IMG/VR virus record: IMGVR_UViG_3300021142_000042
Location: 1-51,905 of that record
DNA length: 51,905 nucleotides
From: a virus
Reading direction: 5' to 3' (one strand)
A program made the position numbers and the translations under genes. Each line of letters starts with the position of its first letter. Within the stretch, counting starts at the first letter, position 1. Positions 463-51,905 of the stretch are shown one piece after another. The notes below the pieces were generated by a model. The model was not told where the DNA came from and made no database searches. It saw only the letters and a program-made list of their open reading frames with translations.

Positions 463-1908
463 CTAAATCAGCGCGGCTTGCACCGGCTTGGCGCGCACGC
501 GGCCATCGTCGATGATCACCGCGCCTTCGTCGCCGTCGCCCACGCGCTCAATCCAGAGTTGCGTTCCGGACGCCTCTGCCATCTCCGCCACCATCGCCAT
601 GCTGCGGCGGTCCAAGAGCGAGGCGTCACGCACCAGGACAACCCGCAGTTGCGGATTCATCGCCTGCGCAATCGCCATGCTGACACGGATCTGCTCGGCT
701 TGGCTCGCCTGCGACAGCGGGATCGCGTAGAACGTCACTTCACCTTCGTCGCCGAATCCGAGTCCGGCGATCGGATACACAGCGGCAGCAATCCGCTTGA
801 CGCGCTCCGAATCGATGGTCGCGATTTCGTCGCTCATGGCCTTGTACTTGCTAGCGAGCGTGAGCAACTTGTCGTGCGCCGCCTTGCGCTGGGCATTGGC
901 GCGGACCTTGGCGTTCGTGGCGTCCACGTTCGCCGCCTTGGCGCGGATCGCTTCCACGTCCGGCAACTTCACGGCATCTGCGGCGCGCAGGTTCTCGGCG
1001 GCAGTGGCGCGGCTGGCTTTGGCTTTGGCATCGTTGTTGTCGATGCGCAGTTTCAGGTCCGCTTTTTTCGCCTCGCACTCGCCTTGAATCCGCGTCGCCT
1101 CTGCCAGTTTGCGCACCTTCAACTCGTCGATCTGGCGGTCAAACTCGGCATTGCTGCGCTCGATTTGCTTTGCCGTTTCGATGGCGTAGAGATCGGCGCG
1201 CCGTTCGCCAGCGCGCACATCGCAGGCGTCCGCTTCCGCTTCTAGCCGCTGCGCGTCTGCCCGCAGGTTGTCCACCGTGCGCGCCAACTCCGTCGCCTCG
1301 GTCAACTCCGTCAGCACTTCGCCCGCAGACAACTCCGCTTCTGGCACGTCCAGATGCTCTTGCGGCAACACCTTGCACGCACCGTCCTGTGCATCGCGGT
1401 CGCGGCCCGTCTGCAGCCGTTGCGCGTACAGCAGGGCGCGGCGCGAATCCAGGTCCGACACGTCGACCCCGACCAACCGCCGCAGCGTCTCCGCCTGCTC
1501 CTTCTCCGCCTGCTCCTTCTCCGCCAGCCGCGTGAACGCCAGCGGGTCAAACGACAGTTTGCCGATCCGCTCGTTCAACCACTCTTGCGGGCGCGGAACG
1601 ATCATGCCTTCGCGCGTCGTGACCTTGAGCGTGAAAACGTCGTCTCCACCTTCCTTGGCTGACTTTTTGACCTCGCTGGCGATCTTGAAATCGCCACAGT
1701 CAATGAACACTTCGCTCTTGTCGGCACCTTCGCGGATCGGCTTGGACGGCATAGCGCCTTTGCCACCAAACGCGCCGGCAATCGCATCCAGCACGCTCGA
1801 CTTGCCCTGCGCGTTGTCGCCGCCGAGGATCACGACGCTACCGTCCGGCTTGATTTCCGCACGCTCGATGCGCTTGAAGTTGTGGACGCTGAGAGAGAGA
1901 ACTTTCAT
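463..1908 (-). CDS. SMC/RecF-like AAA ATPase
   Basis: Predicted 481-aa ATPase of the SMC/RecF/Rad50 class. The N-terminus has the typical LSVHNFKRI start and a Walker A motif GGDNAQGKSS at residues 29-38. The middle (roughly 200-345) is an Ala/Glu/Arg-rich coiled coil. Near the C-terminus are an LSQAEQ-like ABC signature and the strand VVLVRDAS, which takes the Walker B/D-loop place but lacks the usual acidic pair. Such ATPases hold or process DNA ends in recombination. The gene follows recT and a PDDEXK exonuclease in the same leftward operon, which supports a role in phage recombination or end processing. The exact activity is inferred. Confidence 0.85.
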   Translation of the reverse strand: MKVLSLSVHNFKRIERAEIKPDGSVVILGGDNAQGKSSVLDAIAGAFGGKGAMPSKPIREGADKSEVFIDCGDFKIASEVKKSAKEGGDDVFTLKVTTREGMIVPRPQEWLNERIGKLSFDPLAFTRLAEKEQAEKEQAETLRRLVGVDVSDLDSRRALLYAQRLQTGRDRDAQDGACKVLPQEHLDVPEAELSAGEVLTELTEATELARTVDNLRADAQRLEAEADACDVRAGERRADLYAIETAKQIERSNAEFDRQIDELKVRKLAEATRIQGECEAKKADLKLRIDNNDAKAKASRATAAENLRAADAVKLPDVEAIRAKAANVDATNAKVRANAQRKAAHDKLLTLASKYKAMSDEIATIDSERVKRIAAAVYPIAGLGFGDEGEVTFYAIPLSQASQAEQIRVSMAIAQAMNPQLRVVLVRDASLLDRRSMAMVAEMAEASGTQLWIERVGDGDEGAVIIDDGRVRAKPVQAALI

Positions 1909-1941
1909 GATTGCACCGTGTTTGCCTTGCGGCGGTTAGAG

Positions 1942-2913
1942 TTACAGGGGCTTGTCGTCTTCGGAGCACACCTTGCACACCGCGGATTTCGTGTCGGACC
2001 ATGTGAACGGCTTGGCGCACTGGACGCAGATAGCCGGCGCGCGCCCCGCCAGAACGTCAGCGCTGGGCTGTGCCGCGTCCCTCCCGTCGTCGCCGTGCAA
2101 CTCCGCGTCTTGGACCTGCGCGGCTTCTGCGGGCTTGGGGGTGCGCTTGGCCAGCCACTCGTCAAACTGCTTGCGCGGCGGCGTGCCAGCGGCCAGCCCG
2201 GTCAGCAGGTCGCGGCGCTGGGATTCGCTGCGGTCGCGCGGCAGCGTCTTTTTGTACGCGCCCAGCCACGCCTTCACGTCCTCGTATTTGCAGCCGAGTT
2301 CGGTCAACCGCGCCATGAACGCCTTGCGATCGTTGTCCAGCCACTCAGCCACAGGCAACGACTCGGCAATCAGCGCCACGGGCGCGGAGATCGGAGCGCC
2401 GCCGCCGTCCACTTCCGCGCCCAATTCCTCGGGCGTGTAGTGGATGCCGTTCAACGCCTCCTCGCAGGCCATGCGGGCACACTCGGTAATCGCGCGGCTC
2501 TTGAGCATCGACGCCGGGAAGTTTTTCCAGGTCGGGTTTCCGGTCAAGCCAGCCTGCCGCGCGCGGTCCATCGTCCACGTCGCCGTGAACTTGAACTCGG
2601 GATCGTCTGCGCGCACGATCTCCGCCATCGCGCTGTTGTCCGTCGCCGTCACGCGCAGTTTATGCCCCGCGCGCCGCACCAGCGCGGAGATCAGGTTGGC
2701 GCTGGCTGTGACTTTGCCCTTGATGACGTGGATCCCGTTGATCGCGGTAATCGGCGGGATTCCCAGCGCCTCGCCGAACTCGATCGCCCAGATCACATTG
2801 CCGGGGTTGCGCTTGAACGCGTCCGGCAGCAGGTCGGACTTCGCCAGCGTCTCCGCGTAGGCGAGTTTGGAAGCGAGCGCGTTGCCGCCGCCGATGGTTA
2901 TTTCGTTTGCCAT
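1942..2913 (-). CDS. recT: RecT-family single-strand annealing protein with C-terminal zinc motif
   Basis: Predicted 323-aa recombinase that would anneal complementary single strands during phage recombination. The core resembles RecT-family phage proteins: WAIEFGEALGIPP, then TAINGIHVIKGKVTASAN and the SMLKSRAITECARMAC segment. The last 30 residues add a likely zinc ribbon, CVQC with 13 or so residues to CKVC, which is not part of the minimal RecT fold. The start at 2913 follows a GGGGGA ribosome-binding site and lies just after the exonuclease stop; a longer in-frame start at 2928 would overlap that gene. Its neighbours are a PDDEXK exonuclease upstream and an SMC-like ATPase downstream. 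Confidence 0.85.
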   Translation of the reverse strand: MANEITIGGGNALASKLAYAETLAKSDLLPDAFKRNPGNVIWAIEFGEALGIPPITAINGIHVIKGKVTASANLISALVRRAGHKLRVTATDNSAMAEIVRADDPEFKFTATWTMDRARQAGLTGNPTWKNFPASMLKSRAITECARMACEEALNGIHYTPEELGAEVDGGGAPISAPVALIAESLPVAEWLDNDRKAFMARLTELGCKYEDVKAWLGAYKKTLPRDRSESQRRDLLTGLAAGTPPRKQFDEWLAKRTPKPAEAAQVQDAELHGDDGRDAAQPSADVLAGRAPAICVQCAKPFTWSDTKSAVCKVCSEDDKPL

Positions 2914-2915
2914 GG

Positions 2916-3776
2916 TCAGATCCCCCAAGTGGAAAGGCTGTCGGTTTCGTCATCGGCGGACACCGCGCCCCATTTGGGCAACGACGCGACGACAGTTTTC
3001 TGCGCAACACCAAGCCAACGGCCAGTCACCAGCGCGGCGGCGTAGCGTTTCAGCAGTTTGTCCGCGAGGTCATAGCCCGCCTGCATCATCGCGGCGTCGG
3101 CCTGAATCACCACCACGTCAAACGGTGCCGACGATTCGACAAACACCCAGCCGATCGCGTTCACGTCGATGCCGTTTTTCGCCAGCCCGCGCGTGTAGTA
3201 GCCGAGTTGGCCAAAGTAGGCACGGCGCGCGATTGCCATCACGCAGGCGTTGACGCTGAGGTCGGTCATGCTCGTGCCGATCGACTTGAGATCCCACAGC
3301 AGGCCCAATTTCGTGCAGATCGCATCGGCCTTCATCCGGCAGTCGATCTGCGTCACGACGCCAGCCGCTTCCACACTTTCAGACCAGAACGCCTCATGCT
3401 CGCGCAGATCGGCGGATTCCAGCCAAACGCGCGCGTCATCGTGGGCCAGTACGTTCTCGCGGATCGCCTCGCACGTCGCGATTTGCTGCGCCGTCAGGAC
3501 CAGCGCGTCAGGCGCAATGCCTGCGCGCCACGCCTTCGCCTCCTTGCCGGTGGACAGCGCGCCACCAGCGGTCACGAACGCCTCGGGCGCGGTGACAACG
3601 GACGCGACGAACCGCTCCGGTTCCAGAACGGCCAAGTGAATCGCCGTCCCCAACTCCATCGCCGCAGTCGCCGGTTTGTTGCCATCCACGATGACCTGGC
3701 GCAAGTGCGCGGCGGACGTGGCAGCGGCTTTGAGGCGGCTCCAGTTCATCGCCGGATGATCGTGATAGTTGCTCAT
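2916..3776 (-). CDS. PDDEXK-family exonuclease (RecE/exonuclease VIII-like)
   Basis: Predicted 286-aa nuclease that would resect double-stranded ends to feed the RecT-like annealing protein. Visible elements are GTAIH (43-47), an Asp in CRMKADA (about 151), DLKS (162-165) giving the D...(D/E)xK core, and QLGYY (190-194) matching the RecB-family QxxxY motif. This layout fits the exodeoxyribonuclease VIII-like PDDEXK family. Its start overlaps the preceding gene by ATGA, implying translational coupling, and recT starts two bases after its stop. Exonuclease plus annealing protein is a classical phage recombination pair. Confidence 0.85.
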   Translation of the reverse strand: MSNYHDHPAMNWSRLKAAATSAAHLRQVIVDGNKPATAAMELGTAIHLAVLEPERFVASVVTAPEAFVTAGGALSTGKEAKAWRAGIAPDALVLTAQQIATCEAIRENVLAHDDARVWLESADLREHEAFWSESVEAAGVVTQIDCRMKADAICTKLGLLWDLKSIGTSMTDLSVNACVMAIARRAYFGQLGYYTRGLAKNGIDVNAIGWVFVESSAPFDVVVIQADAAMMQAGYDLADKLLKRYAAALVTGRWLGVAQKTVVASLPKWGAVSADDETDSLSTWGI

Positions 3777-4078
3777 TTCCCCACCTCATCCATCGTCAAA
3801 GTCCGCTTATGCGAATCCCGCCACTTGCGCCCCGCCGCGTCCAGCGACGGAAACTCAGCCACCGCGCGAGCCTTGGCCACGCGGAACCGCAGCGCCGTGC
3901 GCTTGATGCCGAAGTGCGCCGCGATGGTGTCCAGCGTTCCCGCCGTCGCAGCCGTCTCCGTCCAAACTTCCTGCAAGCGCAGGCCGTCCGCGGTCAGCTT
4001 GCCGTTCTCGACCATGTGAACCGGCGATTGCTTGTTTTTCACGCGGTCCCCCTTCCGTTGTTTCTTCTGCTTTGCCAT
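3773..4078 (-). CDS. Small basic helix-turn-helix-like protein
   Basis: 101-aa protein with a Lys/Arg-rich N-terminus (MAKQKKQRKGDRVKNK) and a central segment TLDTIAAHFGIKRTALRFRVAKARA that reads like a helix-turn-helix. It may be a DNA-binding regulator or an accessory factor of the recombination genes it precedes. The start at 4078 was chosen because it follows GGAG and lies downstream of the promoter at 4113-4141. The upstream in-frame ATG at 4111 is essentially next to the -10 and would not be in the transcript. It overlaps the exonuclease start by ATGA. Confidence 0.7.
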   Translation of the reverse strand: MAKQKKQRKGDRVKNKQSPVHMVENGKLTADGLRLQEVWTETAATAGTLDTIAAHFGIKRTALRFRVAKARAVAEFPSLDAAGRKWRDSHKRTLTMDEVGK

Positions 4079-4112
4079 TGTCTTTGCTCCGTTTGCGTTT
4101 GCCGCTGTCATG

Positions 4113-4141
4113 ATGTTAGTAGCGTTGGAATCTGCTGTCAA
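4113..4141 (-). promoter_or_regulatory. Leftward sigma70-type promoter with operator-like repeats
   Basis: On the minus strand: TTGACA (4136-4141), 17-bp spacer, TAACAT (4113-4118). CATCATG words sit beside both boxes, giving AGCATCATGCT just upstream of the -35, a near-palindrome. The same arrangement recurs at 9325-9352. It would drive the helix-turn-helix protein, exonuclease, RecT and ATPase genes. The shared words suggest binding sites for a common regulator. Confidence 0.75.
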
Positions 4142-4149
4142 GCATGATG

Positions 4150-4971
4150 CTAAGTGGCATCGAACAAATCGACCTGCATGCCAATTGTAGGCGGAACGAA
4201 AAGCCCGGCCTGCCGCGGCTTCTGCATCCGCCTGACCGATTCGTCGTAGGCTTCCTGCCGGATCTCGCTGCCGATGAACTTGCGCCCCTCGCGGATCGCG
4301 GCGATGCCTGTGCTGCACCAGCCCATACACGGATCGGCTATCGTGTCACCCGGTCGGCTGTAGTCGCGGATCAACTGACGCAAAAGCCAAACAGGCTTGC
4401 CGCCGATTTCGCGCTTTTCTTCCGCCTCGTCCAAACCTTTCGGCATGACATAGCCGCCCGGCAACGCGCCCCACTTGCTGTACGGCTCGCGTCGCGGACG
4501 GGCGACGACGATCCACACGGACCATTGTGCGGGGCCGTCGCCAGTCATGCGGACGCGACTACCAGGCTCAAGAAATGCCAGCGGCGAAAAGACGTAGCGC
4601 CCGCGCTGATCGAGCGCTTCCGCCCAATCCGTCGACAGCAAGTGATCGGTCAGAATGACGATCCAGCCGTCGCAACGCTCCGCCCAAAAGTCGCAGAAGC
4701 CGTCGACCTCGGATCTGCCCCATGCGTCGTAAGTCAGCGACCGACGATGCGCAACGCCAGCCTCGGCTTTGCGGCGGGCGTAGGCGCGATCCTTTTCCTG
4801 TCCGCCCGCGTAGTCTGCGCTCGGAATTGCCGATCCTGAATCGTGCCCCACATGCGTTCGCGCGGAATACGGCGGATCGCAGATCACAGCGGACACGCGC
4901 TCACCCGCCAGCGCCGTCGCGTAGTCGCCGTGGTGCAGCGTCCAGTCAGCCCCGGTGGCGATGCGGCTCAT
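4150..4971 (-). CDS. DNA methyltransferase (DPPY type)
   Basis: 273-aa protein with the catalytic motif DPPY at residues 32-35, preceded by AVIC, and a C-terminal motif I-like segment DPCMGWCSTG at 213-222 followed by FIGSEI. The order (DPPY first, AdoMet motif last) fits beta-class N6-adenine or N4-cytosine DNA methyltransferases. Motif I is unusual: the common DPFxGxGTT is altered to DPCMGWCST. No restriction endonuclease is adjacent, so it is probably an orphan enzyme protecting phage DNA from host restriction. The start at 4971 overlaps the upstream small gene by ATGA; a longer start at 5013 is possible. Confidence 0.8.
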   Translation of the reverse strand: MSRIATGADWTLHHGDYATALAGERVSAVICDPPYSARTHVGHDSGSAIPSADYAGGQEKDRAYARRKAEAGVAHRRSLTYDAWGRSEVDGFCDFWAERCDGWIVILTDHLLSTDWAEALDQRGRYVFSPLAFLEPGSRVRMTGDGPAQWSVWIVVARPRREPYSKWGALPGGYVMPKGLDEAEEKREIGGKPVWLLRQLIRDYSRPGDTIADPCMGWCSTGIAAIREGRKFIGSEIRQEAYDESVRRMQKPRQAGLFVPPTIGMQVDLFDAT

Positions 4972-5102
4972 TTCGACCTCGCAGGACACTTCTCGCCGAC
5001 AAGCCGCGCCCAATCCACGACGCAGCCGCAGAGGCGGCAGATCGCGGGGATGTGGCTGGACGGGTGATGCGATGGAAGGTGTGATTTTGGCGGGTGTTTC
5101 AT
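4968..5102 (-). CDS. Small Cys/His-rich protein
   Basis: 44-aa protein coupled on both sides by ATGA overlaps, which is the main evidence that it is real. It has a His/Pro-rich N-terminus followed by CRLCGC and a later Cys, a plausible single zinc site. Function unknown. Confidence 0.6.
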   Translation of the reverse strand: MKHPPKSHLPSHHPSSHIPAICRLCGCVVDWARLVGEKCPARSK

Positions 5103-5485
5103 TTCACACCCCGCCGCGTCGCTTCCGCCTCGCACCACGCGGCAAACACGCGCCACCCGTCATCGTCGCACTTCCAGCCAACCCAAAACCGCGAGTCGCT
5201 TTCGCGGACCGGCTCGCCAGTGCGGACGAACTCGGCTTGCCGCGCGTCGTCGTGGCGCTGCAATTCCTCGCTGACCTCGCGACCGATCTGCGCGAGCTGA
5301 TGCGGCGTCAGCGCCTCCGAGTAGCGGCGCACGGCGTCCTGAGCGTTACCAGGTGCGGCGGTCATCCTGCCCAAACTGTAGCGCACGGATTGCAGCAGCA
5401 GCGGCCACGCGTCGTAGTGCGACACGGCGATCTGGCCGTCGATGGCGACATAGCGCCGCCCGCGTTTCTCGAAAATCTGGGTCAT
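5099..5485 (-). CDS. Unknown protein
   Basis: 128-aa soluble protein beginning MTQIFEKRGRRYVAIDG and ending with a Trp-rich stretch (FWVGWKCDDDGWRVFAAWC). The start at 5485 was chosen because it overlaps the upstream stop by ATGA, the pattern used throughout this operon; the frame is open further upstream. No family recognised. Confidence 0.65.
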   Translation of the reverse strand: MTQIFEKRGRRYVAIDGQIAVSHYDAWPLLLQSVRYSLGRMTAAPGNAQDAVRRYSEALTPHQLAQIGREVSEELQRHDDARQAEFVRTGEPVRESDSRFWVGWKCDDDGWRVFAAWCEAEATRRGVK

Positions 5486-5811
5486 TTCTCCACCTTCACG
5501 CCGTCGCGGGTGAACTCGCACTGCATCGTATCCGCAAAATTCGCGCGGTCCTGTTGCGGCGGGGCGGAAAGGTCGCGCAGGATCGCCGCGCACAACTCTC
5601 GCCCGCCTTGCTTTTCTGCCTGCGATCCTCGCGCGTATTCCGGCACGAAAACGACCGGCGTGGATGCGATGACCTCTTGGCAACACGTCCGCACAAATCG
5701 GACCATTCGCCGCATCGCGTCCCGCTCCGCCGTCACCGCCCGCAGTTCCACCCTGAGCGATTCCACTTCGCTTTCGCGCATCGCCGCCGCTGTCGTGTTC
5801 GTGTCGTTCAT
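5482..5811 (-). CDS. Unknown protein with N-terminal coiled coil
   Basis: 109-aa protein. Residues about 10-45 are rich in Glu, Arg and Leu in a heptad-like pattern (ESEVESLRVELRAVTAERDAM), suggesting a coiled coil. The start is set by ATGA overlap with the DnaQ-like exonuclease gene upstream. No family recognised. Confidence 0.65.
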   Translation of the reverse strand: MNDTNTTAAAMRESEVESLRVELRAVTAERDAMRRMVRFVRTCCQEVIASTPVVFVPEYARGSQAEKQGGRELCAAILRDLSAPPQQDRANFADTMQCEFTRDGVKVEK

Positions 5812-6404
5812 CGGTTTGCCTTCTGCCAAGCCAACTGCTTTGCGCGCACGTCCGTTTCGTTGTCTGGCAGCCACTTGGTCAGCGCGTACAGCAATCGCCC
5901 GCTCGCCTCGGCATCGTTGGCGGCATCGTGCGCCGCGCCGTCGAACTCGATCCCGATCTTCTCGCACAGGTCGGTCAGGCGGTAGCCGCGCTCATACTTG
6001 CCGACGCCACGGATCGCCTTTGCCAGCGCCAGCGAGCACAGCCAATCGCCAGCGATCCACTGCGCAACCGAGCCGTCGCGCACCAGTTCCGCCATCAGAA
6101 ACGGCTGGTCAAACTGCGCGTTGTGGGCACACAGCAGCGCGCTTTGCACCGGCAGCCCGTCGCAGAGGCGCGAGAATGCAGCGCCAAACCGCAGCGCGTC
6201 CGACACCGCGTCATCGCCGATGCCGTGAATCGCTGTCGTCTCCGCGGGGATCGGGATTCCAGGATTCACGAGGATCGCGCGCTTGGCCAGCAACTCGCCG
6301 CCGCGGAAGTGCGCAAGGCCAAGTTGTACCACGCGATCCCGCGTCGGGCTAAGCCCTGTCGTTTCGGTGTCCAACACAATCAGGTCACGTTCATCGAGCC
6401 ACAT
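5808..6404 (-). CDS. DnaQ-like 3'-5' exonuclease (DEDDh)
   Basis: 198-aa exonuclease of the RNase H-fold DEDDh group (DNA polymerase III epsilon/oligoribonuclease-like). Motif Exo I is LDTETTG (about 11-17), Exo II is HNAQFDQ (94-100), and Exo III is HDAANDAEA (159-167) with its conserved His. These residues coordinate two metals to remove 3' nucleotides. With no phage polymerase present it could proofread or trim for the host polymerase, act in recombination, or degrade host nucleic acid. The start at 6404 follows a GGTGAG-type ribosome-binding site and overlaps the upstream gene by 14 bp. Confidence 0.85.
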   Translation of the reverse strand: MWLDERDLIVLDTETTGLSPTRDRVVQLGLAHFRGGELLAKRAILVNPGIPIPAETTAIHGIGDDAVSDALRFGAAFSRLCDGLPVQSALLCAHNAQFDQPFLMAELVRDGSVAQWIAGDWLCSLALAKAIRGVGKYERGYRLTDLCEKIGIEFDGAAHDAANDAEASGRLLYALTKWLPDNETDVRAKQLAWQKANR

Positions 6405-6720
6405 TCTCACCTTCCCGCGCCGCAGCGCCCAAATCGTCACAACCCGCGAGCGCGACCAGTTCCGCAAGCTCGCGCTGCATCCGCAGGTTTTCCGCCCGCA
6501 GCAACTCCAGGTTCCCAGCCATCTCCGCGACCATCAGCCTAAGCGTCGCGTCCGGCGCTTTCGCTACCTTCCACGCCTGATTCGCGTCGCGCCGGTACAC
6601 GTTCGCCTCGCTTCGGATGCGCTCACGCTCGTACTCGGATTGAGCCACGGCAGCACGCAGCAGTTCGCACGACGGGCAATCGCTTTCGTTGCGCAGGCGT
6701 TGGGTTTCGAGGTCGGTCAC
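6391..6720 (-). CDS. Unknown coiled-coil protein
   Basis: 109-aa protein with an N-terminal CPSC pair and long Glu/Arg/Leu-rich helices (ELLRAENLRMQRELAELVAL). Probably a small coiled-coil protein; function unknown. Its start overlaps the upstream gene stop by ATGA. Confidence 0.65.
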   Translation of the reverse strand: MTDLETQRLRNESDCPSCELLRAAVAQSEYERERIRSEANVYRRDANQAWKVAKAPDATLRLMVAEMAGNLELLRAENLRMQRELAELVALAGCDDLGAAAREGENVAR

Positions 6721-7135: not shown

Positions 7136-7467
7136 GGCTTTCCGCCAATGTCGCCGTACCGGCTCGGCATCACGTCGCGGGCAAGCTGCTCACCGATGCT
7201 CGGCGCAGCCCCGTCCATCGCGATGAAGCGGTCGATCTTCGCGTCCAGCGCAAGCACGTCAGCGCAGATGTGCTCAGCCAGTCGCTTGGCCTGGTCCTCG
7301 CTGGCCACGTGCTTGTGCGAGAAGTGGACTTGAAAGCCGGGGACGACCGTGCCGAACGTGGCGTCGGTATGCGGATGCAACACGGAAAAGCGCGGCGCGA
7401 GGTAGTCATCTTCCTTGGCGTTCGCCGTCTCGTGCCAGTCGTTGCGGGTCCAGTTCAGGTTGCTCAT
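7132..7467 (-). CDS. Unknown protein
   Basis: 111-aa soluble protein beginning [20 protein letters not shown]. No catalytic motif or membrane segment is visible. Both ends overlap neighbouring genes by ATGA. Confidence 0.65.
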
Positions 7468-8036
7468 TTCGTCACCTCCGTTTTCTCAAACCGCTTCGCA
7501 AACTCCGCGCGCTGCTCGGTTGACCAGTCAGGGCACTTCTCCGCCAGAATCTCGACCATCAGGTCATACGGGCGCGGGCACGGAATCGACGGGTCCCACA
7601 ACTCGCGCGACTCAGTGAACACGCAAGCGCGTTCCAGTTTCACGCCTTGATACGGACACGGGCCAGGCGGTGACGCTGCCCAGCGGTCAAACGCGGTCGG
7701 ATCGGGGTGGCACGCTGCATCGTAGGCCATCGCTTTCGCCGTCAGCGCTGGCGACAGTGATCCCCATCTTGCGAGTAGCAGCATCGTCGGCGCGCACAGG
7801 TACGCCCCCGACAGGTCCGCCCCCGACAGGTCCGCCCCCGACAGGTACGCCCGTGACAGGTTCGCCCCCGACAGGTACGCCCGTGACAGGTTCGCCCCCG
7901 ACAGGTACGCCCCCGACAGGTACGCCCGTGACAGGTCCGCCCCCGACAGGTCCGCCCGCTTGCCTTCCGGCGAAAGTCGCAACCACAGACCATGCGATCG
8001 CACGATCTCGTTCAGTTCTTCTTGAGTCATCTTCAT
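7464..8036 (-). CDS. Pentapeptide-repeat protein
   Basis: 190-aa protein. About residues 27-82 form an uninterrupted run of pentapeptides of the type A(D/N/Y)LSG or A(Y)LSR, encoded by nearly identical 15-bp units (7801-7965). Such repeats fold into a square right-handed beta-helix. Some family members (Qnr, MfpA) mimic DNA and bind gyrase; whether this one does is inference. The non-repeat C-terminal half is rich in Pro, Trp and Cys. ATGA overlaps on both sides show it belongs to the early operon. Confidence 0.8.
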
Positions 8037-9305: not shown

Positions 9306-9671
9306 TCAGTGCGTCGCTGTCATGATGATAGCGCCGCCCGCAGTGGTGTCAAGCATGATGATAGCGGCGAGTCTGCGGAATGGGGTCCCTGACCTTTGCG
9401 TGTCACGTTTAGGTTTTTGCAGCGACGTGATCAGCGTTTCGCCAGATCCGCCGCATTCCGCCACCTCGGCGCGCAATGCTGCGCAATCTTTGCACAAGTC
9501 GCCGTCATCGCGCAGGAACGCCACAGCGCTCTCGCCGCGCACCCACGTTCGGATGTTCGGCGTGCACAAAGGCGCGTAACTGCTGATGCTGGACGCGTCC
9601 CAATCGTGGATAAGCCCGCTCGGCTGACCTTCGCGGTGCAGGCGGCTTTTGCGGAGTTGGATGCGGTTCAT
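9306..9671 (-). CDS. Unknown protein overlapping a promoter
   Basis: 121-aa protein. The start at 9671 overlaps the SF2 helicase stop by ATGA. It contains CKDCAALRAEVAECG. Its last dozen codons run through the promoter at 9325-9352, so the 3' end is doubly used. Function unknown. Confidence 0.6.
   Translation of the reverse strand: MNRIQLRKSRLHREGQPSGLIHDWDASSISSYAPLCTPNIRTWVRGESAVAFLRDDGDLCKDCAALRAEVAECGGSGETLITSLQKPKRDTQRSGTPFRRLAAIIMLDTTAGGAIIMTATH
9325..9352 (-). promoter_or_regulatory. Leftward sigma70-type promoter with operator-like repeats
   Basis: On the minus strand: TTGACA (9347-9352), 16-bp spacer, TATCAT (9325-9330). CATCATG occurs next to the -35 and overlapping the -10, as in the promoter at 4113-4141. 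It would transcribe the gene at 8985-9278 and onwards. Confidence 0.8.
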
Positions 9672-12157
9672 GCGTTCTCCGTCAGTTTGGGCCATGGCAG
9701 ATGCGCCTTGCGCCGGTTCTTGAGCGCGAAGTTGATTGACAACAGGTCGCTGATCTCTCCCTTGGTCAATTCGGCGGCGTTCGCGCTCACGGCCTTCAAC
9801 GCCTTGCGGTGCTCAATCGGGATCGCCGTGTCGCTGGCCATTCCCGCCATCGCCCATTGGAGCGCGCCAAGCTGGCGATCGGACGGTGGCAGCGGTCGCC
9901 AAGCGGTCGACGTGATTTTCTGGTCAACGATGCCATCGCACAGAAACGCGAGGTACAGGCGACGGACGTAGGCGCGGAAGCTGTTGAGCTTCTGATTCAC
10001 GATCGTCTTGCCAAAGTCGTCCGGCTCGCGCGTTTCCTTCGCCGTGACTTCCTTCGCCAGCGACACCAGATCATCGGCGTTTTCGTCATCCTCGGCTTCC
10101 GCGCTGCCCGCAAGCATCGCCTCATAGGTCAGCCCGAACGTGTGAAACAAATCGTGCGGGTCCAGCAAATAGGCCGTCGTCTTGCCTGGTGAACTGCGGA
10201 TGACTCGGCCAACTTCCTGACAGAACCGCACGCGCGACACCACAGGCCGACGCATACACAGCCACCGCAGCCACGGGAAATCCACGCCCTCCGCGAGCAT
10301 GTTGACGTGAACCATCGCCTCTATTTTCCCGCTCTTGAGGCTGGCGACTACCGCCGCTTGCTCGTCCGGTGACAGCCGCGAATGCACGGCGCGCGCTTTG
10401 ACGCCTTCCGAGTTCAGGCGATCGGCGAACGAGTCCGCGTCGGCGATCGTCTTGGCGTTGACCAGACCGGGGCCAACCTTGCGGATGCCGTGGATGAGTT
10501 GCATACAGCAGTCGTCAAGCGGAACGTCGCCGCCCGTCCAGTGAATCAACTCGGGCTTGACGATGACACCATCGGCGAACGCCTGCGCTGGGCCGTATTC
10601 GTAGATCAGCTCCGTCCACAGGCTCAAGTCCTGCGTCTTGAGCGCGCGGAACGGCGTGGCGGTGAAGCCGATCGCAGATGCTGGATTCAGCACGCCAACC
10701 GCCGCGATGCAACTTGCGGCCTCATTTTTGTGAACCTCATCCCCAAGCCACAGCGACACCGCCAGCCCGCGCGCCTGCAATTCCAGCGCGAGCGCGCCAA
10801 GAGACGGCTGGCAGCACACGATCACGTCGCGGATTTCCTTGGCTTCGGTGAAGTAGTGGCCAACACGGTCGGCGCCGATGCGGTCGGCGATTGTCGACGC
10901 GAGTTGCTTGACCAGGCGGATTGTCGGCGCCGTCACAACCGTGACTTGCCCGCGCTTGGGCATCCGCTGGCAGACAATTTCAGCCGCGCAGATCGACTTG
11001 CCGGAGTTGTGCGTGATTGTGAAATCATCAAGCAAATAGCGGTTGTCCCCGTCGATTTGGAAGCCGTAGAACGGCTCGACTGTCCCGCTCGGCGTGACGC
11101 TGAATCCTGACCGCAGCGCATTCTTCGGCTGCAACCGCGGCGCTGCCATTTTACGCGCCACCCGCGTCGGAATCATGTCCGTGTGACCGCTGATTGAAAC
11201 GCGCCAGTAAGTGCCGCGCGCGCCGGTCTGACACGACTTTTCACACTCGGCGAGATACGCGGCAAGCCCAAGCGACCGGCACACAAACACCACGTCAGCG
11301 GACAACTGCTTAGATTTGGAAATGAAATCAAAACCTTTGTTGAGCAAGTGGCCGTCCGTGTCCAACAAGCCAGCAAGAACCTGCAACCGCGTTTCGCGCG
11401 AGCCGAGGCGGTAGGCGTCAGGGATGAACTTGCGATCGCAAATCAATCCGCTGATGCCTGACGCCGCCACAGCTTCATGCAATGCACCTTCGTTGCGGAT
11501 GAAGTAGTCGGCAGCCTTGTTGTTGGTTTTTCCGCTGACACGAACCGTCGCGCCGTACTTTTCCGCGATTTCCCGGACCGTCTGGACAATTTCACGATCC
11601 GGGGTGCAGACCGCGATCCGGTTGCGCAGCGTTGTGCCGTCCCCGAGCATGACCCCGATAAAATACGGCTCGAACGGCTCTGGACGCGGCGGAAAGTCAC
11701 ATGCGGACCTGACCTGCTTGCACAGTTCGCGCAGAGAGGTCCCCTTTTTCAGCCACTCGTGAACCGTCAGATCCCGAAGCGGAGCATCCGCGCCGTCGCG
11801 CGAGTCCACAAATGTCAGGACGTGATCGCCGTTGACGCGCCACGGCTCGCCCTTTATCGGCGTCACGTCAAACATTTCAGCGTTACCGCGACAAAGCGAA
11901 AGCACGCGCCTGGGCGTCGAGTCCGGCCCCATCAGCAGATCGCCAACAGCCACGGACTCAACAGTTTTCACGCTGCCGTCGAACATGAGAATGCGCTGCC
12001 CGCGCGCATGGCATCCCATGACGGCGGACACCACGCCGCGTTTGCCGGAATCGATCGCGGCCAGCGCGAGTGGCAGCGCAGCCCGTTGCCACTCGCGAGG
12101 GGCGACGCCGTGCCACTCGTTCGCCTGCAAATCCTGATTGAACATCGATAACTGCAT
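9668..12157 (-). CDS. SF2 DNA helicase (DEVH-box) interrupted by an intein
   Basis: 829-aa precursor. The host protein is a superfamily 2 helicase of about 493 aa. Its Walker A motif (MG/SGKS) is split by a 336-aa intein at residues 49-384. DEVH (473-476) is motif II, GFTATP (497-502) motif III, and QEVGRVIR (647-654) motif VI with its arginine finger. It may remodel forks or recombination intermediates, like phage UvsW-type helicases. The start at 12157 immediately follows the DnaB stop; the frame is open to 12352 inside the helicase gene but that start is unlikely. The protein can only be active after splicing because the ATP-binding loop is divided. Confidence 0.85.
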   Translation of the reverse strand: MQLSMFNQDLQANEWHGVAPREWQRAALPLALAAIDSGKRGVVSAVMGCHARGQRILMFDGSVKTVESVAVGDLLMGPDSTPRRVLSLCRGNAEMFDVTPIKGEPWRVNGDHVLTFVDSRDGADAPLRDLTVHEWLKKGTSLRELCKQVRSACDFPPRPEPFEPYFIGVMLGDGTTLRNRIAVCTPDREIVQTVREIAEKYGATVRVSGKTNNKAADYFIRNEGALHEAVAASGISGLICDRKFIPDAYRLGSRETRLQVLAGLLDTDGHLLNKGFDFISKSKQLSADVVFVCRSLGLAAYLAECEKSCQTGARGTYWRVSISGHTDMIPTRVARKMAAPRLQPKNALRSGFSVTPSGTVEPFYGFQIDGDNRYLLDDFTITHNSGKSICAAEIVCQRMPKRGQVTVVTAPTIRLVKQLASTIADRIGADRVGHYFTEAKEIRDVIVCCQPSLGALALELQARGLAVSLWLGDEVHKNEAASCIAAVGVLNPASAIGFTATPFRALKTQDLSLWTELIYEYGPAQAFADGVIVKPELIHWTGGDVPLDDCCMQLIHGIRKVGPGLVNAKTIADADSFADRLNSEGVKARAVHSRLSPDEQAAVVASLKSGKIEAMVHVNMLAEGVDFPWLRWLCMRRPVVSRVRFCQEVGRVIRSSPGKTTAYLLDPHDLFHTFGLTYEAMLAGSAEAEDDENADDLVSLAKEVTAKETREPDDFGKTIVNQKLNSFRAYVRRLYLAFLCDGIVDQKITSTAWRPLPPSDRQLGALQWAMAGMASDTAIPIEHRKALKAVSANAAELTKGEISDLLSINFALKNRRKAHLPWPKLTENA
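11006..12013 (-). mobile_element. Intein with LAGLIDADG homing endonuclease, inserted in Walker A
   Basis: The insert begins with Cys (CHARGQRILMFDGSVK, block A) and ends TITHN followed by Ser+1, the standard splice junction residues. Two DOD/LAGLIDADG-type motifs are visible: FIGVMLGDGT (about intein residue 118) and LAGLLDTDG (about 213). Length is 336 aa. The insertion sits exactly between Gly and Ser of the P-loop, a favoured conserved intein site. The endonuclease would spread the intein to intein-free alleles. Confidence 0.92.
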
Positions 12158-12158
12158 G

Positions 12159-13436
12159 TTATTTCCCCACAAAGCGAACGTGCGCGCCTTCCCAGCGCAG
12201 GGCGCCATCGCGCGTCCTTCCGCTCGGTCCCGACTTGTTCTTGAGCAAGACAGCGATCGCCTCGCCCTTGTCCTGAGACATGCCCATTTTTTCAGGGATA
12301 ATCGGGCAAGTGATGGTGTAAGCGTCCTTTTCGAGTTGGCTGCAATCAGCAAGATCGGCCATCGTTGGCATCCGCTTGGACTTTTCCACGTCGCGGTTGA
12401 GTTGCGCCAGCACTAAAACCGGCGCGTTGATCGTGCGCGCAAGGTCGGCGAGTTCCGTGCTGATCTTGACCAACTCATCGAGCCGGCTGTGACTGCGCGA
12501 GTCGCTGCGGATGCGCTGGTAGTAGTCCACCACAACAAGCGCCACCTTGCCGCGGCTGGCGGACCTGCGCGACTCGGCGACGATTGACTGCACGGTCACG
12601 TTGACATCGCGCATTCGAATTGGCAGCGCGGACAGTCCGCTGAACGCGTCGCGGTAGCCCGCTAGCGATTCGTCGTTGTGCTGCTTTTTCGTGATCGTCC
12701 GCAGTGGCACATCGGACACCTGCGCGGCCAGCCGGCGCACTTGGTCGGTGTTCGGCATCTCGACGCAGAAAAACAGCACTTCACCAACGCCTTGCGCCGC
12801 CACGCCGACAGCGATCTGTGTCGCCAGCGAAGTCTTGCCTTGTCCTGGGCGCGCTGCCACGACGTGCATCGCTGCGGTGTATCCGCCGTCCAGCAACTCA
12901 TCGAGCCACGGCACGGCTGTCGGCGTCTTGGATGCGGTTTCAGATTCGCCGTTGTCTTCAGCCCACGCGCGCTGGATCACGTCTGCGATCGACTCCATCG
13001 CCGTCACCTTCGGCTCTGGGCCATCCGCTCCAAAACCGGAGACGGCCGCCAGAAACTCCTCTGCCGTTTGCTCCCGCGCCGCAGATCCAAGTTGCGCCAA
13101 ACGCTGCCACTGCCGGCGCGCCTCTGCGGCCAGCGCCACCTGTTGCGCGTGATGCTTGGCGCTCATGGTCGATCCGCAGGCGTCGGTGATGTCGACCAAA
13201 AACTCCACATCTGCGCGGCCATTGACCGCTTGGGAGACGGTGACAATATCGATCGGGGCCTTGGCCGCCTGCAACGCCTGCAACGCGCTCCAGACGGCGA
13301 CGTGACGCGGATCGTAGAAGTCGGCGGCGCTAACCACGTCCGCGGCGTCAAGCAGCGCGTCGGGGTCAACAATGCACGATCCGAGCAGCGCGCGCTCGCT
13401 TTCGTCGTTACGGACCATGGCGGGGATTTTGCTCAT
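12159..13436 (-). CDS. dnaB: Replicative DNA helicase, DnaB family
   Basis: 425-aa hexameric replicative helicase that would unwind DNA ahead of the host polymerase. An N-terminal DnaB-like domain (ALLGSCIVDPDAL... DFYDPRHVAVWSAL) is followed by a RecA-fold domain with Walker A ARPGQGKTS (195-203), Walker B VALVVVDYYQRI (Asp about 304) and the KNKSGPSGR segment near the end. The start at 13436 overlaps the initiator stop by ATGA. Initiator followed by helicase is the classic phage replication pair, as in lambda O-P or P22 18-12 type modules. Confidence 0.9.
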   Translation of the reverse strand: MSKIPAMVRNDESERALLGSCIVDPDALLDAADVVSAADFYDPRHVAVWSALQALQAAKAPIDIVTVSQAVNGRADVEFLVDITDACGSTMSAKHHAQQVALAAEARRQWQRLAQLGSAAREQTAEEFLAAVSGFGADGPEPKVTAMESIADVIQRAWAEDNGESETASKTPTAVPWLDELLDGGYTAAMHVVAARPGQGKTSLATQIAVGVAAQGVGEVLFFCVEMPNTDQVRRLAAQVSDVPLRTITKKQHNDESLAGYRDAFSGLSALPIRMRDVNVTVQSIVAESRRSASRGKVALVVVDYYQRIRSDSRSHSRLDELVKISTELADLARTINAPVLVLAQLNRDVEKSKRMPTMADLADCSQLEKDAYTITCPIIPEKMGMSQDKGEAIAVLLKNKSGPSGRTRDGALRWEGAHVRFVGK

Positions 13437-14386
13437 AGTTCCTCGTAGGTTTTGTCGTTTCGCCATGTTTCGGACGTGGATGGCTGCTGCGCCTTTGCCC
13501 TGTTTTCACGCTCCTTGATGACCGCCTCCAGGTTCTCGCGAGCAAGCCACGCACGGATTGGCTTCACGCGCTTTCGTCCGCTGTGCCAGTCGTCTGCGTG
13601 CGCCCATGCCAGCAACTCGCGCAGTCCATCTTCCTGCAACTGCTCCAGCGCAGCGGCCAAAACGCGGTGATTCGTCGCGTCCGCCTTGGCTTCTGGCTGG
13701 TCGCGCATCATCTCGTTCCATATCGCCGCGACGCGCATCGCTTTGGCAAACATCGCGTTGATTGGCCTCGCCGGCTTCTCCGGTTTGGGTGTCGTCAGGC
13801 CCAATTGGTAGGGGCGCAATTCTGCTGGGGTAGCTGGGTCGCTACCCTGAACCGCTGTGTAGTCTGAACAGCCGTTCAGGGTCGGATTTGGAGTTGCGGT
13901 CAAGGCCCAGTTGTCGTCAGGATCTGGAGCAGGTGACGCGGTGTTGTTCTTGGTCTCTGATGAATGACTATCTGATTGGCTGAACCGCTGTTCAGGGTAC
14001 GAGACTGAACCGCTGTTCAGGGTGGGACTGAACCGCTGTTCAGGGTGGGACTGAACCGCTGTGTAGTCTGAACAGCCGTTCAGGGTAGCATCGGAATCCC
14101 ATTGATACCAAAGGCAATCGTAAGACGTTGCCGCATCAGCGCCGTGTTTGGTTTTGCGCCGTGTTTCGCGCAAAAAACCAGCAGTTACAGCTCGGTCAAG
14201 AACCTTTCGGACGCCGCGATCTGTCATGCTGAGCGCGGATGCAAGTGTCGCTACCGCAGGCCGCGCGTCGCATCCGGTCTGAAAGTCTGCCCAGTGCGCC
14301 AGACGCAGGCACACCCGGAGCATTGTCGCATCCGTGCAGCGGTCGATCAGACTAGATGTTGCGCGGCTGTAGCGTTCAGCGACCAC
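13433..14386 (-). CDS. Replication initiator, winged-helix plus DnaD-like C-terminus
   Basis: 317-aa protein, first major gene of the leftward block and coupled to dnaB by ATGA. The N-terminal third reads as a winged helix-turn-helix (AVATLASALSMTDRGVRKVLDRAVTAGFL). The C-terminus (IRAWLARENLEAVIKERE) resembles DnaD/replisome-organiser tails that recruit DnaB. The middle contains duplicated LNGCSDYTAVQ and repeated PEQRFS peptides created by DNA iterons at 13847-14086. The protein probably binds those sites and loads DnaB, like lambda O. The GTG start at 14386 was chosen for its AAAGGA site; the frame is open to a GTG at 14434. Confidence 0.75.
   Translation of the reverse strand: MVAERYSRATSSLIDRCTDATMLRVCLRLAHWADFQTGCDARPAVATLASALSMTDRGVRKVLDRAVTAGFLRETRRKTKHGADAATSYDCLWYQWDSDATLNGCSDYTAVQSHPEQRFSPTLNSGSVSYPEQRFSQSDSHSSETKNNTASPAPDPDDNWALTATPNPTLNGCSDYTAVQGSDPATPAELRPYQLGLTTPKPEKPARPINAMFAKAMRVAAIWNEMMRDQPEAKADATNHRVLAAALEQLQEDGLRELLAWAHADDWHSGRKRVKPIRAWLARENLEAVIKERENRAKAQQPSTSETWRNDKTYEEL
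13847..13882. repeat. Iteron unit A (36 bp)
   Basis: Identical to the 36 bp at 14051-14086. It contains a CTGAAC half-site followed by CTGAACagccGTTCAG, a dyad. It lies inside the initiator gene. Confidence 0.8.
13980..14086. repeat. Iteron cluster, candidate replication origin
   Basis: Three copies of CTGAACCGCTGTTCAGGGT (13980, 14005, 14028) are spaced 25 and 23 bp apart, then a 36-bp variant starts at 14051. Each copy holds the dyad CTGAAC-4-GTTCAG. The cluster lies within the gene of the protein most likely to bind it, as lambda ori does within gene O. The stretch between this cluster and unit A (around 13950-13978) looks somewhat richer in A and T. Confidence 0.7.
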
Positions 14387-14501
14387 GGCTCGATCCTTTG
14401 CGCAGCCGACCAACGACACGATTGGACTGATCACAGCGGCGGCAAGGCGGACGCGCGCGGATCATCGTGAAGCTGGAGGCTGCGAAAAGGGAACGAACCA
14501 T
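14376..14501 (-). CDS. Possible 41-aa leader protein
   Basis: Open frame starting ATG at 14501 after AAGGTGA, encoding a basic 41-aa peptide with a CRRC pair, and overlapping the initiator start by 11 bp. It is the first reading frame behind the leftward promoter at 14558-14587. It is short and without recognised relatives, so it may be spurious. Confidence 0.35.
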   Translation of the reverse strand: MVRSLFAASSFTMIRARPPCRRCDQSNRVVGRLRKGSSRGR

Positions 14502-14557
14502 GTGATTCACCTTGCGCGTTGCTCGGGACCGTCCAAGGTCGAATCGGCAACACCCTG

Positions 14558-14587
14558 ATTACCGCACAGTCCGCCACACGCTGTCAA
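14558..14587 (-). promoter_or_regulatory. Main leftward (early) promoter
   Basis: On the minus strand: a perfect TTGACA (14582-14587), 18-bp spacer, GGTAAT (14558-14563). It points into the replication genes with a leader of roughly 160 nt to the initiator start. Confidence 0.6.
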
Positions 14588-15006
14588 CGCCCGTCGCGGA
14601 CTTTCACGCAGATAGGTGGGAAAAAATCTATGGCGCTTTGTCACCGTTTGGCAACATCCATTGCCAGCCCGCTTGACACCGCGCACTCTCCGACCGTGAC
14701 ACTCGCGCGCCCCCGCCGTCCGAACGCGACAGCGACAATCGAGCGCCGACGCAGGCGATTAGCGCGGAACTTGCAGAAGCGGCAGAACGTGGCGAAGCCT
14801 GGCCGCTCGAACAGCCACAGCCGAACGCACGCGCAACGGCTTGACTACTGAAGTTTCTGAAACAGAACGCTACAAGGCAGATTCACCGCAACTTTCGCGC
14901 AACCGCACAGAATCGCACGCGCTTATCCGAGACCCATCCACTCCCGCGCAATCCACTCCTCGCGCGCGAAAAGGAAAGTGTCTCAGACTGCCTCATTCGG
15001 GTGAGG

Positions 15007-15041
15007 GAGAGGCCTTTTCTCTCTGTCTGAGCCTCTCTTTT
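15007..15041 (+). terminator. Terminator-like hairpin
   Basis: GAGAGGC (15007-15013) pairs with GCCTCTC (15031-15037), followed by TTTT. The 17-nt loop is long, and the region can also form the alternative CTCAGAC/GTCTGAG pairing. Confidence 0.45.
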
Positions 15042-15198
15042 CGTGGCGTTTAGTCGGGCGTAGGTCGGTTGTGGAAACAATCGCCGCAGATTGTTCGCTG
15101 TGGTGGACAATCGGGCTCGACCGGACTGGGCTTGATTTCGGTCACGGTTTTGCGAAGGCTCTTGCGTGACGCGCGCGACCGGGCGTCAAAAACGACAA

Positions 15199-15219
15199 CG
15201 CCAGCGGGCTAGGCTGGCG
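15199..15219 (-). terminator. Hairpin, possible leftward terminator
   Basis: CGCCAGC (15199-15205) and GCTGGCG (15213-15219) form a 7-bp stem with a 7-nt loop. Read leftward it is followed by TTGTCGTTTTT, the T-rich tail expected of an intrinsic terminator. It could stop leftward transcription arriving from the late side. Confidence 0.5.
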
Positions 15220-15239
15220 CGTCGGGGCGGTTGTGCCGT

Positions 15240-15248
15240 GGTTTAGTC
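15240..15248 (+). promoter_or_regulatory. GGTTTAGTC intergenic motif
   Basis: One of three exact GGTTTAGTC words (also 20352-20360 and 43153-43161), all on the plus strand and each ahead of a rightward gene. A variant, CGTTTAGTC, is at 15047-15055. It lies inside a GGGGCGG/CCGCCCC dyad here. Confidence 0.45.
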
Positions 15249-15254
15249 CGCCCC

Positions 15255-15284
15255 TTGACGCGGCGCGCGGGTTCGTCGCACACT
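15255..15284 (+). promoter_or_regulatory. Candidate rightward promoter of the late block
   Basis: TTGACG (15255-15260), 18-bp spacer, CACACT (15279-15284), about 35 bp before the first rightward gene. The -10 match is moderate. Confidence 0.45.
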
Positions 15285-15318
15285 GAGATTGCGCCACCTT
15301 GCGCGCGATGGTGAGTCT

Positions 15319-46274: not shown

Positions 46275-46355
46275 GGCGCGTTGGGGGAGAGGTCCATCCC
46301 AATTCAGTCGCAAGGCTGGAGAAACAACCCGAAGGTTCGAATCCTTCACGCGCCC
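46275..46355 (+). tRNA. tRNA-Cys-like gene (GCA), degenerate anticodon arm
   Basis: 81-nt cloverleaf candidate. Acceptor GGCGCGT (46275-46281) pairs with ACGCGCC (46348-46354), the same arms as Escherichia coli tRNA-Cys. D arm GGGG/TCCC has A14 and GG. T arm GAAGG-TTCGAAT-CCTTC (46331-46347) is canonical. The anticodon stem TTCAG/CTGGA closes an 8-nt loop TCGCAAGG containing GCA but with C33 instead of U33, and the variable loop is 10 nt. It may be a pseudo- or specialised tRNA. No CCA is encoded. Confidence 0.55.
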
Positions 46356-46423
46356 CCGTCCGAACACCGATGGAGAAACGACCGCTCTGTGTGGATCGCC
46401 AAACGGACCGGGCAATCCTGCTT

Positions 46424-51715: not shown

Positions 51716-51905
51716 CTATCGGTAGATGTTCCCCTTGACGCCAGCGTGACTCGTGACGTGCGTCAGCCCGGTGCAGCCGTCGAGGTAGATGGAGCCGCCG
51801 ACGCTCAGGCCATCGGGCAGCGCCGTGAGCCCCATGCAGCCGTCGAGGTAGATGGAGCCGCCGACGCTCAGGCCATCGGGCAGCGCCGTGAGCCCCGTGC
51901 AGCCG
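51716..51905 (-). CDS. Leucine-rich-type 21-residue repeat protein, C-terminal part (joins 1..376)
   Basis: This is the 3' part of the repeat gene that begins at 376. Bases 51820-51905 duplicate bases 1-86, so the unique coding part is 51716-51819. The last repeat degenerates into a tail ending GVKGNIYR and a TAG stop at 51716-51718. The frame is continuous across the junction (480 nt in total), which supports circular closure. The sequence alone gives no function beyond a repeat scaffold. Confidence 0.8.
   Translation of the reverse strand, partial: GCTGLTALPDGLSVGGSIYLDGCMGLTALPDGLSVGGSIYLDGCTGLTHVTSHAGVKGNIYR
51820..51905. repeat. Terminal direct repeat, right copy
   Basis: Exact copy of bases 1-86. 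Joining the two copies keeps the 63-bp repeat gene open in frame and gives a unit of about 51,819 bp. Confidence 0.9.

What the first reader, a model, noticed from the sequence alone, without database searches (positions are those of the whole stretch)
13847..14086. Iterons inside the initiator gene: candidate replication origin
CTGAACCGCTGTTCAGGGT is repeated three times at 23-25 bp spacing, and a 36-bp variant is present twice. All lie within the gene for a winged-helix, DnaD-like protein that precedes dnaB, as lambda ori lies in gene O. The repeats also force repeated peptides (PEQRFS, LNGCSDYTAVQ) into the protein, showing selection on the DNA.
Basis: partly seen in the sequence, partly recalled or inferred. 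Interest (0 to 1): 0.7.

Follow-up and report, generated by a model that had tools for sequence, protein, structure and literature searches.

The report
Phage replication origin inside initiator gene
A DNA virus of bacteria carries a cluster of palindromic repeats inside the gene for its own replication starter protein, almost certainly the place where its DNA copying begins, as in phage lambda, and the same repeat code turns up in dozens of otherwise unrelated phages.

Summary
The repeats are real and lie where described. Five copies of the palindrome CTGAAC-N4-GTTCAG, plus two degraded ones, lie in 13847-14086, inside a minus-strand gene for a winged-helix, O-like replication initiator that overlaps dnaB by 4 bp. 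The core GAAC-N4-GTTC occurs nowhere else in the 51.9-kb genome. The copies are read in different frames, and 20,000 synonymous-codon shuffles gave at most 2 copies, so the constraint is on DNA, not peptide. The gene's most easily melted 40 bp directly follows the repeats, as measured here in lambda O and P22 gene 18.

A protein-blind search of IMG/VR for paired GGAAC-N3-GTTCC palindromes returned 61 loci. In 38 the array lies inside an ORF encoding a related winged helix, against 1 of about 4,500 other ORFs. Among 27 non-redundant genes, spacing centres on 22-23 bp and 19 have the melting-prone stretch directly after the last repeat (1.2 expected). Several are followed by dnaB.

Best explanation: a lambda-type intragenic iteron origin, bound by the protein it encodes. 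Binding and origin activity are inferred, not shown. It is a new member of a known kind; the shared GAAC dyad code across many phage initiators is the more interesting result.

The parts
13433..14434 (-). O-like replication initiator gene: N-terminal winged helix, unstructured linker holding the iterons, helical C-terminal part. ORF start GTG 14434; GTG 14386 preceded by AAAGGA is a likely alternative start.
   Evidence: ORF; phrog_391 'replication initiation O-like' E 1.4e-4; family HMM built without the window sequence E 9.5e-14 at Z=1000; start context
14096..14386 (-). winged-helix (wHTH) domain, residues 17-113; recognition helix TDRGVRKVLDR
   Evidence: HMM alignment; AlphaFold helix-helix-helix-strand-strand, low confidence (pLDDT 57); no significant PDB match, weak hits mostly winged helices including DnaD
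14051..14086 (-). composite iteron: exact palindrome 14068-14083 plus degenerate palindrome 14051-14066
14028..14046 (-). iteron
14005..14023 (-). iteron
13980..13998 (-). iteron next to the unwinding segment
13940..13979 (.). candidate DNA unwinding element: least stable 40 bp of the gene, within the least stable 0.07% of 40-mers in the genome
13847..13882 (-). distal composite iteron (second copy of the 36-bp element) beyond the unwinding segment; 15-bp inverted-repeat arms 13844-13858 / 13868-13882
12159..13436 (-). dnaB-type replicative helicase; ATG 13436 overlaps the initiator stop codon (ATGA); the ORF can also be read from ATG 13466
   Evidence: Pfam DnaB_C 1.2e-45, DnaB 4.1e-18; junction CTATGAGC

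Best explanation
The segment is the phage's theta-replication origin, of the lambda type, embedded in the initiator gene. Dimers of the winged-helix domain bind the palindromic iterons (GAAC half-sites, 4-bp spacer), which sit about two helical turns apart (23-25 bp) and so build an ordered complex. The complex melts the adjacent low-stability 40 bp (13940-13979), and the initiator's C-terminal part brings in the phage DnaB helicase encoded immediately downstream. Shown by sequence: repeats, palindromy, DNA-level constraint, melting-prone neighbour, gene order, family recurrence. Inferred: that this protein binds these sites, that they melt, that DnaB loads there, and that replication starts there. 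The distal 36-bp element beyond the unwinding segment may be an accessory site or hairpin (inferred only).
For: All five GAAC-N4-GTTC sites of the genome lie within 217 bp. Synonymous shuffles give at most 2 full palindromes against 5 observed. Copies are read in different frames. The gene's least stable 40-mer is at gene nt 456-495, directly 3' of the iterons; the same script gives lambda O 437-476 and P22 gene 18 436-475, and iteron spacing is 20/24/23 in both those phages. The first iteron starts at gene nt 349 here and in lambda. The 4-bp gene overlap is shared with lambda O/P and P22 18/12. Protein-blind DNA search: 38/61 arrays lie in wHTH ORFs against 1 of about 4,500 other ORFs; 17 of 79 N4-type loci likewise against 3. 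19/27 non-redundant genes have the unwinding stretch directly after the last site, 1.2 expected. dnaB follows directly in L027, L072 and L051. Some array-bearing genes are strong O-like family members (phrog_678 3.6e-42, phrog_391 3.4e-44), and one has a C-terminal stretch matching lambda O. Cumulative GC-skew minimum at 13.8-15.0 kb.
Against: No binding, melting or replication data. The skew minimum coincides with the switch of gene direction, so it is confounded. Other equally unstable segments exist in the genome. The window's own melting segment is only 57% AT. Pairwise similarity to lambda O or P22 gp18 is not significant in the winged helix and marginal (P22, p=0.027) in the C-terminal part. 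Two neighbouring 23-bp units are identical, so recent duplication contributes to the array.
Confidence: 0.87

Rival explanations
1. The palindromes are operators of a repressor (a phage repressor or a LexA-type protein of the host; GAAC-N4-GTTC resembles the SOS box of some bacteria, from own knowledge), or autoregulatory sites only.
For: Dyad GAAC-N4-GTTC form; an unrelated phage (L007) has two CTGAAC-N4-GTTCAG palindromes in an intergenic region.
Against: All five sites lie about 350-570 nt inside the coding sequence and none near a promoter in the genome; regular 23-25 bp array beside a melting segment; the same layout recurs in winged-helix initiator genes of many phages.
Confidence: 0.05
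2. The array is a protein-level or neutral feature: tandem duplication of linker DNA with no binding function.
For: Exact 23-bp tandem units at 14005-14050 suggest recent duplication; the region codes for a linker predicted, at low confidence, to be unstructured.
Against: Different reading frames, palindromic cores with divergent flanks, synonymous-shuffle test, recurrence across phages.
Confidence: 0.04
3. The iterons bind the initiator, but the working origin is elsewhere (for example the 850-bp divergent intergenic region 14435-15288, or a second origin as in SPP1), and this site serves for regulation or fork arrest.
For: Raw skew minimum at 14961 and other melting-prone segments at 14845-14884 and 14967-15046; SPP1 has two origins, one outside gene 38 (PMC6316719).
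Against: No repeat cluster in the intergenic region and no further GAAC-N4-GTTC site anywhere.
Confidence: 0.06

Closest known systems
Phage lambda ori within gene O
   Same: Palindromic 18-bp iterons at 20-24 bp spacing in the linker after the winged helix, read in several frames; AT-rich segment directly 3'; next gene overlaps by 4 bp (PMC7466680, PMC3349717).
   Different: Iteron sequence unrelated (ATCCCTCAAAACGAGGGA); the next gene is loader P, not a phage dnaB; winged-helix sequence similarity not significant pairwise; no second iteron element beyond the AT-rich segment is annotated.
Phage P22 origin in gene 18, followed by the dnaB-like gene 12
   Same: Same gene order (initiator, then phage-encoded DnaB, 4-bp overlap), annotated origin at gene nt 353-497, four repeats at 20/24/23 bp, unwinding stretch 436-475.
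   Different: Iteron sequence (ATCGGTAAAAC type); C-terminal similarity only marginal.
SPP1 oriL within gene 38
   Same: Direct repeats plus AT-rich unwinding element within the gene of the origin-binding protein (PMC6316719).
   Different: Separate helicase loader gp39 and a second origin oriR; no such second site seen here.
Lactococcal phages TP901-1 and Tuc2009 rep genes (DnaD-like)
   Same: Replication gene said to contain the origin (Tuc2009 record).
   Different: No GAAC palindromes and no match to the wHTH family model.
repABC plasmid origin within repC
   Same: Origin inside its initiator gene, with a melting-prone region (PMC3155836).
   Different: No iterons in repC.
Burkholderia phage KS9 gp46
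   Same: Member of the same wHTH family (E 9.7e-24) with GGMAC-N3-GTKCC sites inside the gene.
   Different: N3 spacer and degenerate half-sites; sites not clearly more frequent than chance over the locus.

Membership tests
lambda-type intragenic iteron origin | Three or more iterons inside the initiator gene, in the linker after the DNA-binding domain | tested here: met
   5 exact and 2 degenerate sites, gene nt 349-588
lambda-type intragenic iteron origin | Each iteron is an inverted repeat, spaced about two helical turns | tested here: met
   CTGAAC-N4-GTTCAG; spacing 23, 25 (and 17+23) bp
lambda-type intragenic iteron origin | AT-rich/unwinding segment directly next to the iterons | tested here: met
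   Least stable 40 bp of the gene directly 3'; only 57% AT in absolute terms
lambda-type intragenic iteron origin | Initiator gene followed by helicase or helicase loader in one operon | tested here: met
   dnaB, 4-bp overlap
lambda-type intragenic iteron origin | Initiator binds the iterons; segment supports replication | not testable with these tools
   needs biochemistry or genetics
O-like wHTH initiator family | N-terminal winged helix homologous to the family | tested here: met
   HMM without window sequence E 9.5e-14 at Z=1000; phrog_391 E 1.4e-4
O-like wHTH initiator family | C-terminal domain homologous to lambda O / P22 gp18 | tested here: inconclusive
   P22 p=0.027, lambda p=0.38
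DnaD-like proteins | Match to DnaD domain models | tested here: not met
   No DnaD Pfam match in the window protein; only relatives L044 and L027 show DnaD_N, below cutoff
LexA/repressor operator | Sites at promoters | tested here: not met
   All sites inside the coding sequence

The most novel reading that the evidence does not exclude
A large, so far unnamed set of phage winged-helix initiators shares one origin code (GAAC-N3/N4-GTTC palindromes, 22-23 bp spacing, unwinding stretch directly 3') written inside the initiator gene, so origins of many uncultured phages can be located, and initiator-iteron specificity read, from sequence alone; this phage represents a TGAAC/N4 branch with an extra composite site on the far side of the unwinding segment.
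Probability: 0.55. Interest if true: 0.62.

Novelty: new member of a known kind. Interest (0 to 1): 0.5.

Why it matters
Origins of environmental phages are rarely known. Here the origin is predictable from sequence, and the same dyad code recurs in at least 27 non-redundant initiator genes, giving a data set for studying how initiator and iteron specificity change together, when the binding site is part of the gene for the protein that binds it. For this phage alone the result is ordinary: a lambda/P22-type origin in a divergent phage.

Tried and rejected
Close homologues of the initiator: only the same virus in viral contigs, none in phage or plasmid records by tblastn. The one genome-contig hit (L010) is a chance frame with no repeats. 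AlphaFold of the full protein was too poor (pLDDT 43); the winged-helix model gave no significant PDB match. PDB sequence search gave nothing relevant. No Rfam match near the site. TP901-1 and Tuc2009 rep genes do not share the code. L020 and L023 (protein-found relatives) show no GAAC array. The GC-skew minimum was judged uninformative because gene direction switches there. Literature searches found lambda, SPP1 and repABC descriptions but none of the shared GAAC code; most subscription papers are not held.

Full report
OBSERVATION. The window is a complete-looking virus record (51,905 bp; first and last 86 bp identical). In the minus-strand ORF 14434-13433 there are five exact palindromes CTGAAC-N4-GTTCAG, at 13864, 13980, 14005, 14028 and 14068, and two degenerate ones at 13847 and 14051. 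Three stand alone as the 19-mer CTGAACCGCTGTTCAGGGT. The others form a 36-bp composite present twice, identical 36/36 with unrelated flanks. GAAC-N4-GTTC occurs nowhere else in the genome; 0.9 are expected. Only four 12-mer repeat clusters exist in the genome, none in 30 simulated sequences. The other three have periods of 63, 15 and 24 bp and so are codon-phased; this one is not.

DNA OR PEPTIDE. The same 19 bp is read as PEQRFS (13980, 14028) and as TLNSGS/TLNGCS (14005, 14068, 13864), with the half-composite in a third frame. Shuffling synonymous codons 20,000 times with the protein fixed gave at most two palindromes against five observed. The DNA, not the peptide, is what is repeated. Two 23-bp units are identical, so recent duplication plays a part.

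SURROUNDINGS. The gene encodes a winged-helix protein with weak but consistent similarity to O-like initiators (phrog_391 E 1.4e-4). The dnaB gene (Pfam DnaB_C 1.2e-45) begins at ATG 13436, overlapping the initiator stop codon as ATGA. The least stable 40-mer of the gene, 13940-13979 (gene nt 456-495), directly follows the last proximal iteron and is within the lowest 0.07% of 40-mers of the genome. Beyond it lies the second 36-bp composite. Single-stranded folding of the segment is much stronger than shuffles (z -5.5), as expected for clustered palindromes.

CONTROLS. The same script on lambda O found iterons from gene nt 349, spaced 20/24/23, in several frames, with the least stable 40-mer at 437-476. 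On P22 gene 18 it found repeats spaced 20/24/23, with the least stable 40-mer at 436-475. P22 has the same gene order (18 then dnaB-like 12, 4-bp overlap). The exact agreement at nt 349 with lambda should not be over-read: the start codon here is uncertain, and GTG 14386 has the better ribosome-binding site.

RELATIVES. Protein-only searches found just the same virus. An alignment with the Caulobacter phage Sansa initiator (winged helix 72 against shuffle mean 25, 0/1000) reached distant relatives in IMG/VR. In the linker right after the winged helix, L015 has four CGGAACAAAGTTCCG at 23/22/23 bp. L018, L019 and L021 have three GGAAC-N3-GTTCC each, L022 two GGCACAAGGTGCC, and Sansa three CAACCGGC. 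L020 and L023 show none.

PROTEIN-BLIND TEST. Scanning IMG/VR for two GGAAC-N3-GTTCC palindromes 6-24 bp apart gave 61 stretches. In 38 the array lies in an ORF matching the winged-helix HMM (E<1e-3), against 1 of about 4,500 non-overlapping ORFs in the same loci. After reduction to 27 genes under 70% identity, spacing is dominated by 22-23 bp, 22 genes have sites in more than one frame, and 19 have the least stable 40-mer within -13 to +20 nt of the last site, 1.2 expected. The spacing peak is only unbiased within the 19-37 bp range the pattern allowed, and the uniform null for the unwinding segment ignores any general AT bias of linkers. An HMM from these 38 genes without the window sequence scores the window protein at E 9.5e-14 (Z=1000); its seed model had included the window domain, so this is not fully independent. 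Downstream genes include dnaB in L027, L072 and L051, a DnaB_C-bearing 680-aa protein in L039 and a DEAD helicase in L084. Array-bearing L027 and L079 proteins are strong O-like members (phrog_678 3.6e-42; phrog_391 3.4e-44), and the L079 C-terminal stretch matches lambda O. A scan for three GAAC-N4-GTTC sites, the spacer of this phage, gave 88 stretches. Of the 79 newly fetched loci analysed, 17 have the array in a wHTH ORF, against 3 hits among the other ORFs.

MECHANISM. Best reading: initiator dimers bind GAAC dyads set two turns apart, melt 13940-13979, and hand over to the phage DnaB. Binding, melting, loading and origin activity are inferred by analogy with lambda (PMC7466680, PMC3349717) and SPP1 (PMC6316719). 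GC skew turns at 13.8-15.0 kb but is confounded by gene direction.

NOVELTY. Origins inside initiator genes are well known (lambda, P22, SPP1, repABC). This one is a new member. The shared GAAC code over many phage initiators was not found described in the open papers searched, but that search is incomplete.

Noticed in passing
9668-12352 (-): DEAD/ResIII-type helicase interrupted by an intein with LAGLIDADG homing endonuclease, inserted in the Walker A motif (MG|CHARGQ ... ITHN|SGKS).
   Followed up: no
1-292 and 51761-51905: 63-bp tandem repeats at both ends of the record (21-aa repeats if coding); the ends share 86 identical bases, so the genome is probably circular or circularly permuted.
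   Followed up: partly
7464-8036 (-): Pentapeptide-repeat protein with a 15-bp DNA repeat.
   Followed up: no
L007:1200-1265: Unrelated phage IMGVR 3300025141_000137 has two palindromes CTGAACGCCTGTTCAG 28 bp apart upstream of a gene, operator-like, beside other inverted repeats.
   Followed up: partly
463-6467 (-): Leftward recombination and repair module: AAA_23/SbcC-like ATPase, RecT, RecE-like nuclease, DNA methylase match, RNase_T exonuclease.
   Followed up: no
46275-46357 (+): ARAGORN reports a tRNA with a 4-base anticodon (gcaa); likely spurious or unusual.
   Followed up: no
arrays in L107, L150, L143: Several N4-type arrays have C-rich spacers (such as CACCCCTCCCC) between the GAAC dyads, suggesting a further conserved element of that subgroup.
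   Followed up: no
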